Positions 56,631-63,522 of a DNA stretch of 64,000 bases are shown here, one piece after another. Position 1 is the first letter of the stretch. Every line of letters starts with the position of its first letter. The position numbers and the translations under genes are program-made. The notes under the pieces were generated by a model. That model saw only the letters and a program-made list of their open reading frames with translations, was not told the DNA's origin and did no database searches. Source of the DNA: a bacterium (GTDB lineage: Bacteria; CAIWAD01); assembly GCA_030429345.1 (NCBI GenBank), contig JAUIFJ010000015.1:30670-94669 (forward strand). The letters are read 5' to 3'.

Positions 56631-57375
56631 CCTGAGGGTTCCTTTCCATGGGTTTCTCCCCCTCTGCGTCCTGCCAGGCCCGTTCGTCCGGATCCTGGTG
56701 CACGCGGGGCTTGAGTAAAAGTACCGCCAGATAAAACAGTGGCGTATCGAAGAGCGCGACCAGCACCTTGAAGAGGAAGCCGTTGAGCAGCAGGCCCCCG
56801 AAGCGGTCCCAGGCGATCACGCCGGCCAGGCAGAGCAGGAGCAGCACGGCGGCCGTGTCCACAAGCTGGCTCACAATGGTCGAGCCGTTGTTGCGCAGCC
56901 AGAGGTGCTTGCCTTTCGTGAGACGCTTCCAGAAGTGGAAAACGCGAATATCGATGAACTGCGCCGCCAGGTAGGCCGACATGGAGGCGAAGACCGCGGG
57001 ACCGAAAAGGCCGAAGACCCGGCCGAAGGTCTCGTCGTCGACGGGCGACCAGGCGGTCTGCGGCACGGCATTGGCGAGCATCACGATGCCCATCACGAAG
57101 AGGCTGGCGACGAAGCCGCTGAAGACGACCCAGTTGGCCCGCCGCCTGCCGTAGAGCTCGCTGATGATGTCGGTCACCAGGAAGGTCACCGGATATGGCA
57201 GGATGCCGACGCTGATCTCGAAAGTATACAGCCCGAAGGGCGTCCAGGTGAAGAACTTCTGGAAGATCAGGTTGCAGGCGACCAGCGAGCTGATGAAGAT
57301 CGCCGCCAGCACCAGGAAGAGCACGCGCGCAAAATCGGTGATCTCGGGATGCTCCGTATACGCAACCTGTTTCAC
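56623..57375 (-). CDS. yhhQ: Queuosine precursor transporter (YhhQ family)
   Basis: 250 aa from GTG 57375, overlapping the nth stop (GTGA). Six or so hydrophobic helices with [33 protein letters not shown] and [15 protein letters not shown]...[17 protein letters not shown], the COG1738 signatures. It imports queuine or preQ0/preQ1. Joined to folE by an 8-nt overlap. Confidence 0.88.
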
Positions 57376-58022
57376 GCCGTCTTCCCCGCGGAGGGGCAGA
57401 GGTCGGCAAGCACGCAGCGGGCGCAGGCCGGGCGCCGGGCAATGCAGACCGCGCGGCCGTGCTCGATGACTCGGTGCGTCAGCCTGACCCACTCGGCGGG
57501 TTCGAAGAGGTCCATCAGTTCCCGTTCCAGTTTGACAGCATCCCTCGTCTTGCCGAAGCCCAGCAGGTTCATGATGCGGATCATGTGCGTGTCGATGACC
57601 ATCGACGGCACGCCGAAGACTTCGCCCAGAATGCAGTTGGCCGTCTTGCGACCGACTCCCGGCAGCTTGACCAGCTCCTCCATCGTCCGGGGCACCTGCC
57701 CGCCATGGAGTTCGAGCACGGCCCGGCTCATACCGACGATGCTGCGCGCCTTCTGGTTGTGGTAGCCGCAACTGTGAATGTCGACCGCCAGCTCCGGCGC
57801 TTCGACAGAAGCGAAGGCCCTGGGCGAGCGGTACTTGCGAAACAGCGGCTTGCAGACCTGGTTGACACGCTCATCCGTGCATTGCGCCGAGAGGATTGTG
57901 GCAACCAGCAACTGGTGTGGGGTTTTGTAGTGCAGCGAGCAGCGGGCGTCCGGCCATTCTTTCGCCAGTCTGCGAACCACTTCGGCGGCCCGCTCCTGAC
58001 GCTTTTTCCTGCTTTCCCTCAT
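57372..58022 (-). CDS. nth: Endonuclease III
   Basis: 216 aa from ATG 58022 (GGGGAG 8 nt upstream). Helix-hairpin-helix LPGVGRKTANCILGEVFGVP with catalytic Lys126, catalytic Asp144 in VIDTHM, and [4Fe-4S] cysteines 193-200-203-209 (C-x6-C-x2-C-x5-C). It removes oxidised pyrimidines and nicks the strand. First of a three-gene overlap unit nth-yhhQ-folE. Confidence 0.94.
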   Translation of the reverse strand: MRESRKKRQERAAEVVRRLAKEWPDARCSLHYKTPHQLLVATILSAQCTDERVNQVCKPLFRKYRSPRAFASVEAPELAVDIHSCGYHNQKARSIVGMSRAVLELHGGQVPRTMEELVKLPGVGRKTANCILGEVFGVPSMVIDTHMIRIMNLLGFGKTRDAVKLERELMDLFEPAEWVRLTHRVIEHGRAVCIARRPACARCVLADLCPSAGKTA

Positions 58023-58375
58023 CGAAGCGGACTCCCCTGCAACTGGCCGGATCAGCATACCAATTCGGCAGGGTTCCTGCATGGAATCCCTTGGTGCGAA
58101 AGGGGCGCTCCCGCGCTTGATGGACCTGCACCCCTTCCGCATTGCGCAGGGCCTTGAGGCGCCCCGGAGCAGAAAAAGTTGGATGGCTTCCAGGACAAAA
58201 ACCGGAAAGCGGCGATTTTCCGGAAGGGAGCGGAGTCCGTGAAGTAGTTTTGATCTTCTTTTCTAGTTGATTTCTATTCGCTTAAGACCATTGCAACAGA
58301 AAATGCACAAAAAGATGAAACTGTAAGGTGCCAGCGATCAGCCTGTAAGAAATAGGGCCTAGATTTCCCCCCGAA

Positions 58376-58904
58376 TTCGAAATCAAGCCCGGGGCGCCCA
58401 GTCGGGGGACCACGGCGCCCCGGGAGATTTCGAAGGCTTTCGACGCCAGGCGTCGATCCTCGACAGACCAACGCAGGGATGCCAGCAGCGGAGGCATTCC
58501 TTCAGCGGGACACCCGTGAACGGGTCTCCTTGAAGCGGCTCGGAACAAGAGATTCCGGGCCGCCGGAAACAGCGGCTTTCCCGTCCCGGAGCGGCCGGGG
58601 CGGGAAAACGGCCGCCACGAACAGCGAAACAGAATCGGCAAACACACAGCGCCGAGCTGGAAGTGGCCGCGAAGAGGCGGCCAGACAGGCGAAAGAAAAA
58701 GGAAAGAGACGCGAAGGCGTTCCGGGACCGTCGGTCGGGGGACACGGCGGTCCCGGAGCTTCGCACTCAGAATGCAGCACGGGCCAAAGCTCCTGGTGCG
58801 CATGAAAGCGAAACAAGAGTTCTCTTCTTCCATAAAAATTCCGCCCTGGACAAGGGAGTCGGCGCCGGTGGGGACAGGCCCGGACGAACCGACAGGGCGG
58901 TTTT
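58376..58904 (+). ncRNA. Candidate large structured RNA, unrecognised class
   Basis: No credible protein gene lies in 58023-59238. Within this span about ten hairpins follow each other. Main ones: 58376-58434 (9-bp + 11-bp stems, all paired), 58479-58496, 58500-58535 (stem with TGAA tetraloop), 58537-58561 (9 bp), 58577-58607 (13 bp with one G-T), 58635-58655, 58664-58683 (7 bp), 58711-58764 (6-bp + 11-bp stems), 58771-58802, and 58841-58900 (8 bp, followed by TTTT). Loops are purine-rich on the plus strand, suggesting that strand is transcribed. The first and eighth hairpins share layout and a GTC-GGGG-GAC tip but differ in stem sequence. I recognise no RNase P, tmRNA or SRP motifs. Upstream 58226-58340 is AT-rich, with no clear promoter. 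Confidence 0.5.
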
Positions 58905-59238
58905 GATTCTGCGCATGGCCGCAGGGAGATTCTGGTGAACTGCCCGATCCGGCGGGTGGTGGAAGGTCTCCCCGCGGTTTTGCAGCATTTCGACTCCTTC
59001 TATTAGCCGCAACACCACCTTCCCATGTCACCCTATACACATGAGAACATCTTTCACTTCCGGGATCCTTAACTGAAAGGCGATGGTGGGCCTAGTGAAA
59101 GCTGCAATAGCGATACTAGACTAAAACGAACAGCTACTCCTGATCTTGACACATAAATCAGGCTTCACCAGTCACATTTAGTCAATACAAGCGACTGGGG
59201 TGTAGCGAACAATGAACACACTGTTGAGGGGAAAACTC

Positions 59239-62478: not shown

Positions 62479-63522
62479 TCAGATCAAATCAGCAGTGTAG
62501 CGCGAGTCCCTGGCCATCAACGCCCAGCCGATCCGCGCCATCTTGTTGGCCAGGGCGACATACGTTTTTTGCTTGCCCCGTCGTGCGACAAGCGCCTGGA
62601 TCCAGCGGCTCAGGGAATCCTCTTTCCCCGCCGCCTGACTGACGACCGCGCGGGCTCCGTGCACCAACAGGTAGCGCAAATAGCGGTCCCCGTTTTTGGT
62701 GATCCTGCCCAAACGGGTTTTGCCGCCCGTCGAATGTTGCCGCGGCACAAGCCCCAGCCAGGCAGCGCAATGACGGCCGTTGGCAAAAGCCTGGGCCTTT
62801 CCCACAGCGGCGGGGAAAGCGGTGCTAAGAATGGGTCCGAAACCGGGAATCGCCTTCAGGCGCTGGCTGACCTCGCTGTTTCGGCACAGCTCTTCAGTTC
62901 TGGCAGTAAGTACTTGCAATTGATCGTTCAGCTGGTCCAGGCCTTTCTTCAGCGTGGTCAGAATGTCCTTCAAGAACTGGGTGATACGACTCTCGGATGC
63001 ATCCAGGAGCATCGGCAGAGCCTGCATCACATTGGCGATGCCGATCTGGATCGTGATGCCGTACTCCATCAACAGGCCCCGGATCTGATTGCATAGGGAC
63101 GTACGCTGCCGGACGACCAATTGGCGTACACGATGCAGGGACAGGATGTCCTGTTGTTCGATGGACTTGACCGGCACGAAACGCATGTTCGGGCGCTGGA
63201 CGGCTTCACAAATGGCTTCAGCATCCAGGGCATCATTCTTCTGGCTCTTCACGAAGGGCTTGACGAACTGGGGAGCCATCAGCTTCACGTCAAGTCCCAA
63301 CTCGATCACTCTTCGTCCCCAGTAGTGCGCTCCACCGCAAGCTTCCATGCCGACGAGACAGGGAGGCAGCTGCTGCAATAGCTCCGGCAGATGCTTCCGG
63401 CTGCAAGTCTTCCGAAACACAGTCTTGCCGCAGCGATCCACCCCGTGCAGGGAAAAGCTGTTCTTGGCCAGATCAATGCCAAGCACCTTGACTGTCTTGA
63501 TCGATGTCGCAAGCTTCTTCAT
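62479..63522 (-). CDS. IS110/IS1111-family transposase (DEDD recombinase)
   Basis: 347 aa, apparently intact. N-terminal RuvC-like DEDD domain: GIDLAKNSF (Asp16), GMEACGGAHYW (Glu60), KNDALDAEAI (Asp about 96 and 99). C-terminal transposase_20 domain with IPGFGPILSTAFPA and the Ser-bearing PRQHSTGGKTRLGRITKNGDRYLRYLLVHGA block. It catalyses scarless insertion guided by a structured RNA in characterised relatives. Confidence 0.95.
   Translation of the reverse strand: MKKLATSIKTVKVLGIDLAKNSFSLHGVDRCGKTVFRKTCSRKHLPELLQQLPPCLVGMEACGGAHYWGRRVIELGLDVKLMAPQFVKPFVKSQKNDALDAEAICEAVQRPNMRFVPVKSIEQQDILSLHRVRQLVVRQRTSLCNQIRGLLMEYGITIQIGIANVMQALPMLLDASESRITQFLKDILTTLKKGLDQLNDQLQVLTARTEELCRNSEVSQRLKAIPGFGPILSTAFPAAVGKAQAFANGRHCAAWLGLVPRQHSTGGKTRLGRITKNGDRYLRYLLVHGARAVVSQAAGKEDSLSRWIQALVARRGKQKTYVALANKMARIGWALMARDSRYTADLI

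What the first reader, a model, noticed from the sequence alone, without database searches (positions are those of the whole stretch)
58376..58904. Candidate large structured non-coding RNA with paired hairpins showing covariation
A 1.2-kb gene-free stretch contains about ten consecutive hairpins. Two of them (58376-58434 and 58711-58764) have the same plan: an outer stem, an asymmetric internal loop (aag/a versus gcgtt/ag), an 11-bp inner stem and a GTC-GGGG-GAC tip. Their stem sequences are entirely different yet fully paired, the pattern expected from selection on structure. Another 13-bp stem (58577-58607) has one G-T wobble. The last long stem is followed by TTTT. I find no motifs of RNase P, tmRNA, SRP, 6S, or group I/II introns. 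It could be a new large ornate RNA.
Basis: partly seen in the sequence, partly recalled or inferred. Interest (0 to 1): 0.78.

Follow-up and report, generated by a model that had tools for sequence, protein, structure and literature searches.

The report
Orphan large structured RNA candidate
A gap between two ordinary genes of an uncultured bacterium carries about ten consecutive RNA-like hairpins, two of them carrying the same tip, which looks like a gene for a large structured RNA of unknown class; no relative was found elsewhere, so its function cannot yet be checked by evolution.

Summary
The hairpins are real. Block 58340-58910 of the gene-free stretch 58023-59211 has 10 strict stems (at least 7 Watson-Crick pairs); 97 other blocks average 3.3, maximum 8. 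It folds far better than dinucleotide shuffles (z -8.4 on +, -7.4 on -). Unpaired bases on + are 43% A and 10% U, close to this genome's own RNase P RNA (41%, 17%). All four wobble positions in the strict stems are G-U on +, none A-C. Together these favour a plus-strand structured RNA of about 540 nt; transcription is untested.

One claim fails: the twin hairpins do not have "entirely different" stems. They share the 10-nt tip GUCGGGGGAC, the outer CGAA/UUCG and much of the inner stem, with four double changes that keep pairing. They look like diverged copies, or copies under one shared constraint; this is covariation from two sequences only. The tip-plus-flank motif occurs twice in the 4.2-Mb genome, both here.

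New: CCCCCGA at 58368-58374 is complementary over 7 bp to both tips, so a pseudoknot or dimer contact is possible.

No Rfam match. No homologue in the same-family or same-class genomes, about 380 further genomes (hairpin model only), phages, plasmids or 80 neighbouring-gene loci. It remains an orphan candidate.

The parts
58340..58910 (+). candidate large structured non-coding RNA (ends approximate)
   Evidence: MFE z -8.4 on +; AT skew up to +0.85 inside; unpaired A 43%, U 10%; no Rfam or Pfam match
58368..58374 (+). CCCCCGA leader segment, complementary over 7 bp to the tips of both twin hairpins (possible pseudoknot or intermolecular contact)
   Evidence: 7 Watson-Crick pairs with 58402-58408; duplex -15.7 kcal/mol with either tip; CCCCCGA occurs 3 times on the + strand of the 64-kb window
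58376..58434 (+). twin hairpin H1: outer stem 58376-58384/58426-58434, inner 11-bp stem 58388-58398/58414-58424, tip GTC-GGGG-GAC 58401-58410
   Evidence: -40.9 kcal/mol; model R1 82.1 bits
58440..58456 (+). short hairpin, 7 bp
58475..58501 (+). hairpin, 8 Watson-Crick pairs plus one G-U; overlaps a 37-nt stretch (58455-58491) that recurs once elsewhere in the genome
58500..58535 (+). hairpin with internal loop
   Evidence: -16.3 kcal/mol
58535..58563 (+). hairpin, 10 Watson-Crick pairs plus one U-G
58572..58615 (+). hairpin with the 13-bp stem 58577-58589/58595-58607 (one U-G) extended by a lower stem
58664..58683 (+). hairpin, 7 bp, flanked by A-rich linkers
58711..58764 (+). twin hairpin H2: outer stem 58711-58716/58759-58764, inner 13-bp stem 58721-58733/58745-58757 with one U-G, tip GTC-GGGG-GAC 58734-58743
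   Evidence: -40.8 kcal/mol; model R1 56.1 bits; similarity to H1 reached by 2 of 20000 shuffles
58774..58803 (+). weaker hairpin
58841..58904 (+). terminal stem 58841-58848/58893-58900 with a 44-nt structured interior, followed by TTTT; possible 3' end or weak terminator
   Evidence: not found by the terminator scan, which allows loops of at most 8

Best explanation
The stretch from about 58340 to 58910 is a gene for an independent plus-strand structured RNA of roughly 540-570 nt. SHOWN: a dense array of strong hairpins joined by A-rich linkers, with no protein or Rfam match. SHOWN: twin hairpins near the two ends of the array (H1 and H2, about 330 nt apart) carry an identical 10-nt tip on diverged stems that stay fully paired. 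INFERRED: the tips are kept because something recognises them. The likeliest partner within the sequence is the leader CCCCCGA (58368-58374), which can form 7 bp with either tip. That gives either a local pseudoknot with H1, a long-range contact with H2 that brings the two ends together, or a contact between two molecules (one leader, two receptor loops). INFERRED: the RNA acts in trans as a folded scaffold, not as a leader of the gene 300 nt downstream.
For: Fold energy z -8.4 on +, 0 of 100 shuffles as good. 10 strict stems against mean 3.3 and maximum 8 in 97 control blocks; 88 against 25 (maximum 60) Watson-Crick pairs. Top of 2278 windows of this genome in combined structure and unpaired-A score. 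Unpaired A 43%, U 10% on +, like the genome's RNase P RNA (41%, 17%) and unlike nth coding on the same strand (23%, 24%). Wobbles in strict stems: G-U 4, A-C 0, against 207:201 in the rest of the window. Twin hairpins: all cells paired, 4 double changes; slid versions pair 32-54% with no double change. Tip motif twice in 4.2 Mb, both here. Leader-tip duplex -15.7 kcal/mol. RNase P RNA and tmRNA found elsewhere.
Against: No homologue anywhere searched, so no test of conservation or covariation across species. The minus strand also folds well (z -7.4) and carries a terminator-like hairpin at 58223-58202. No sigma-70-type promoter found. The plus-strand terminator is weak (T4, 44-nt loop). The 4:0 wobble ratio is small (one-sided p 0.06), and unpaired-A bias does not mark the sense strand of tmRNA or of the tRNAs with this method.
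Confidence: 0.6

Rival explanations
1. The functional RNA lies on the minus strand, starting right of 58910 and ending at the terminator-like hairpin 58223-58202, upstream of nth.
For: Minus strand also folds well, z -7.4. A 22-nt hairpin followed by TTTTTGTCC on the minus strand at 58223-58202, with no minus-strand protein gene recognised between it and 59212.
Against: Unpaired bases would be 40% U and 15% A. All wobbles in strict stems are G-U on + and would be A-C on -. Energy is 7 kcal/mol poorer on -.
Confidence: 0.13
2. The hairpins are a cis-acting leader (attenuator-like) of the T9SS/FG-GAP gene at 59212.
For: Same strand; the next gene downstream; the last stem with TTTT could be an attenuator.
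Against: About 305 nt separate the last stem from the start codon, and the AT-skew signature ends near 58900. No detectable homologue of the gene (E <= 1e-20) in the same-family genomes in which to test linkage.
Confidence: 0.1
3. The stretch is a decayed or non-autonomous mobile element or a cluster of DNA palindromes, not an RNA gene; the twin hairpins would be its end structures.
For: Twin hairpins in the same orientation near both ends of the array; the genome has other palindrome-rich spacers and GGTGCC tandem arrays; an IS110 transposase lies 3.6 kb away.
Against: Single copy in the genome. No long repeats flanking the region. Plus-strand bias of wobbles and unpaired A is not expected for DNA palindromes. 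Paired stems have not decayed.
Confidence: 0.1
4. The structure is a by-product of a GC-rich spacer with A-rich strand skew, with no function.
For: One genome only; no homologues.
Against: Far beyond dinucleotide shuffles and genome windows; identical 10-nt tips on paired, diverged stems.
Confidence: 0.07

Closest known systems
OLE, ROOL and GOLLD RNAs (large ornate bacterial RNAs; PMC12286853)
   Same: Large, hairpin-rich, without a recognised protein partner in the locus; a possible loop-strand contact resembles in kind the kissing contacts that hold those RNAs together as multimers.
   Different: No Rfam match at all. Single chromosomal locus beside nth; no tRNA within 24 kb on the left or 5 kb on the right, whereas ROOL and GOLLD lie in phages or prophages, often near tRNA islands (PMC12286853). 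No conserved tertiary motif could be shown. Architecture here looks like a linear string of hairpins.
Multi-hairpin protein-binding or sponge RNAs such as CsrB/RsmZ (from own knowledge)
   Same: Repeated hairpins with the same apical sequence on different stems, a design that titrates or docks a partner.
   Different: Only two copies of the tip; the tip GUC-GGGG-GAC is not the ANGGA loop of CsrA sites; no Rfam match.
RNase P RNA and tmRNA
   Same: Size class; unpaired-A composition close to RNase P RNA of the same genome.
   Different: Both genes were found elsewhere in the genome with high scores; no match here.

Membership tests
Any Rfam 15 family (the library also covers large RNAs such as OLE, ROOL, GOLLD, RNase P, tmRNA, SRP, 6S, group I/II introns) | Covariance-model score at the curated threshold | tested here: not met
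   No match at gathering score in the region; only chance-level matches at relaxed E-value
RNase P RNA / tmRNA | This locus is the genome's only candidate for the gene | tested here: not met
   RNase P RNA at C40 224.7 bits; tmRNA at C87 168.6 bits
Large structured bacterial ncRNA (general kind) | Extensive stable secondary structure beyond chance in a gene-free region | tested here: met
Large structured bacterial ncRNA (general kind) | Covariation among homologues | tested here: inconclusive
   No homologues found; only internal covariation between H1 and H2
Large structured bacterial ncRNA (general kind) | Discrete transcript | not testable with these tools
   No RNA-seq available
Large ornate RNA-only complexes (ROOL/GOLLD/OLE-like) | Homo-oligomer held by kissing loops and A-minor contacts | not testable with these tools
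   Only a 7-bp leader-tip complementarity seen
Protein-coding gene or pseudogene | Match of an overlapping ORF to a protein family | tested here: not met
   Seven overlapping ORFs; one sub-threshold match, E 0.18
Mobile element (multicopy) | Further copies in the genome or in plasmids/phages | tested here: not met

The most novel reading that the evidence does not exclude
A new class of large bacterial RNA in which one 5' leader strand (CCCCCGA) can pair with either of two identical receptor loops 330 nt apart, so that the molecule either closes its own ends or links to a second copy, giving a self-assembling RNA particle unrelated in sequence to OLE, ROOL and GOLLD.
Probability: 0.12. Interest if true: 0.8.

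Novelty: new variant of a known kind. Interest (0 to 1): 0.45.

Why it matters
Large structured bacterial RNAs are rare and several have unusual biology (ribozymes, membrane particles, RNA cages). A 540-nt orphan in a poorly sampled lineage would add a class and a defined test: whether a shared loop on two hairpins and one complementary leader drive folding or self-assembly. Without homologues or a transcript it stays a candidate.

Tried and rejected
BLASTN of 58250-58950 in own genome and 60 relatives: remaining hits short; the same-class hit (L009) lies inside a protein-coding gene. Synteny: spacers upstream of nth in G001, G002 and G004 show no such region; in G001 only about 750 bases remain before the contig end. 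Hairpin model R1: hits in G002 and G003 (29 and 27 bits) lie in the same reading frame of a conserved gene (GQAVIDGVMMRAPGRVATAV..., DUF1385-like by memory), so rejected as RNA homologues. R1 in 386 genomes: nothing else at E <= 0.005. Single-sequence models R2 and R3: no homologue. Viral contigs: a 36-bit R1 match in L160 was selected by a 16-base exact pattern, has several broken pairs and sits in GC-rich phage sequence without a second twin or A-rich array; judged chance, though not excluded. 80 nth loci of other bacteria: nothing (the R1 scan covered 53 of the 80). A 300-nt shuffle profile of the whole window timed out and was replaced.

Full report
Setting. The window lies on contig C56 of a 4.2-Mb draft genome for which the relatives search returned three genomes of the same family and one of the same class; all others share only the domain. 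The feature sits in a 1.2-kb gap between nth (endonuclease III, minus strand; likely start near 58022) and a plus-strand gene at 59212 for a secreted FG-GAP protein with a type IX sorting tail. ORFs that overlap the gap match no protein family. Long minus-strand frames there are explained by the T-poor plus strand, which yields few minus-strand stop codons (inference).

Is it real. The region 58340-58930 folds at -291.5 kcal/mol as plus-strand RNA, against a shuffle mean of -236.2 (z -8.4), and z is -7.4 on the minus strand. Counting only strict stems (at least 7 Watson-Crick pairs, loop under 40), the block has 10 stems and 88 pairs; 97 other blocks of the window average 3.3 stems (maximum 8) and 25 pairs (maximum 60). 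Over 464 kb of this genome (2278 windows) it ranks third by energy, behind two overlapping windows of one spacer made of repeated palindromes, and first when energy and unpaired-A excess are combined.

Strand. Three weak signs point to plus. Unpaired bases are 43% A and 10% U, close to RNase P RNA of the same genome (41% and 17%) and unlike nth coding on the same strand (23% and 24%). Wobble positions within strict stems are G-U four times and A-C never, while the rest of the window is 207 to 201. The plus-strand fold is about 7 kcal/mol better. Each is imperfect: the unpaired-A sign does not mark the sense strand of tmRNA or of the tRNAs in this test, 4 to 0 has a one-sided p of 0.06, and a terminator-like hairpin at 58223-58202 points the other way.

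The twin hairpins. They are not: both have CGAA...UUCG outside, a similar GC-rich inner stem, and the tip GUC-GGGG-GAC followed by ACGG. In a hand-padded alignment every scorable pair forms: of 21 pairs, 15 are identical in both, four differ on both sides, one is C-G to U-G and one has a padded position; partners slid by one to three columns pair only 32-54% of the time with no double change. The similarity is reached by 2 of 20000 pair-preserving shuffles of H2, and by 137 of 20000 when the tip is held fixed. GTCGGGGGAC followed by ACGG within two bases occurs exactly twice in the whole genome, both here, and never in the four relatives. So these are diverged copies, or copies held by the same constraint. 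The paired changes fit selection on structure, but with two sequences this is weak covariation.

A possible contact. Just before H1, CCCCCGA (58368-58374) is complementary over 7 bp to UCGGGGG in both tips; the calculated duplex energy is -15.7 kcal/mol with either. CCCCCGA occurs only three times on the plus strand of the 64-kb window, so its place a few bases before H1 is suggestive. It would require opening the 3-bp tip stem. Whether it forms, within or between molecules, is not shown.

What it is not. No Rfam family matches at curated or relaxed thresholds. RNase P RNA and tmRNA are elsewhere in the genome. It is single copy and absent from phage and plasmid records.

Homologues. None were found: BLASTN in 60 relatives, the hairpin model in 386 genomes, two single-sequence structure models in 31 genomes, syntenic spacers, 80 nth loci of other bacteria by BLASTN, 53 of them also with the hairpin model, and three viral-contig patterns. 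Two apparent family-level hits lie in a conserved protein-coding gene. One viral-contig hairpin scoring 36 bits was reached by first selecting an exact 16-base match and lacks the rest of the array. The search is limited: few close relatives are held, and metagenomes could not be scanned.

Verdict. The most likely reading is an orphan, independent, plus-strand structured RNA of about 540 nt (confidence 0.6). A trans-acting scaffold in which two identical receptor loops are read by the leader or by a protein is the mechanism I think most likely, but each functional step is inference. Known large bacterial RNAs (OLE, ROOL, GOLLD; PMC12286853) are the nearest in kind, not in family.

Noticed in passing
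window 58455-58491; L002 1501-1537 (reverse strand): A 37-nt stretch of the RNA (86% identical; core CCAANGCAGGNATGCCAGCAGCGG) recurs once in the genome, in the spacer between a deoB-like and an eutN-like gene (names from memory of the sequence), in the same sense as those genes; no other place within 3 mismatches. It could be a shared binding site or a target mimic.
   Followed up: partly
window 58202-58223: Terminator-like hairpin plus T-run on the minus strand upstream of nth, with no recognised minus-strand protein gene to its right before 59212.
   Followed up: no
L142 16600-16910: Spacer with repeated palindromes (CTGCAGGTGAAACCTGCAG, CTGCATGTGAAACATGCAG, and long GTCGGCCGTTGCACGGCCGA pairs): the strongest local folding in the 464 kb sampled, no Rfam match.
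   Followed up: partly
L131 13685-13995; L144 1-180: Tandem arrays of a 12-base unit GGTGCCAGGGAC and variants in the same genome.
   Followed up: no
L166 1501-1576 (G000:C25:22784-22859): A second tmRNA-family match (34.2 bits, below cut-off, 76 bases) besides the full tmRNA on C87; it could simply be a tRNA.
   Followed up: no
window 57372-58022: The nth protein is 59-65% identical to those of Neomarinimicrobiota MAGs, as close as to its own family relative (63%), which may mean horizontal transfer or a nearby lineage.
   Followed up: no
window 62479-63522: IS110-family transposase gene, minus strand; its non-coding ends were not examined for a bridge RNA.
   Followed up: no
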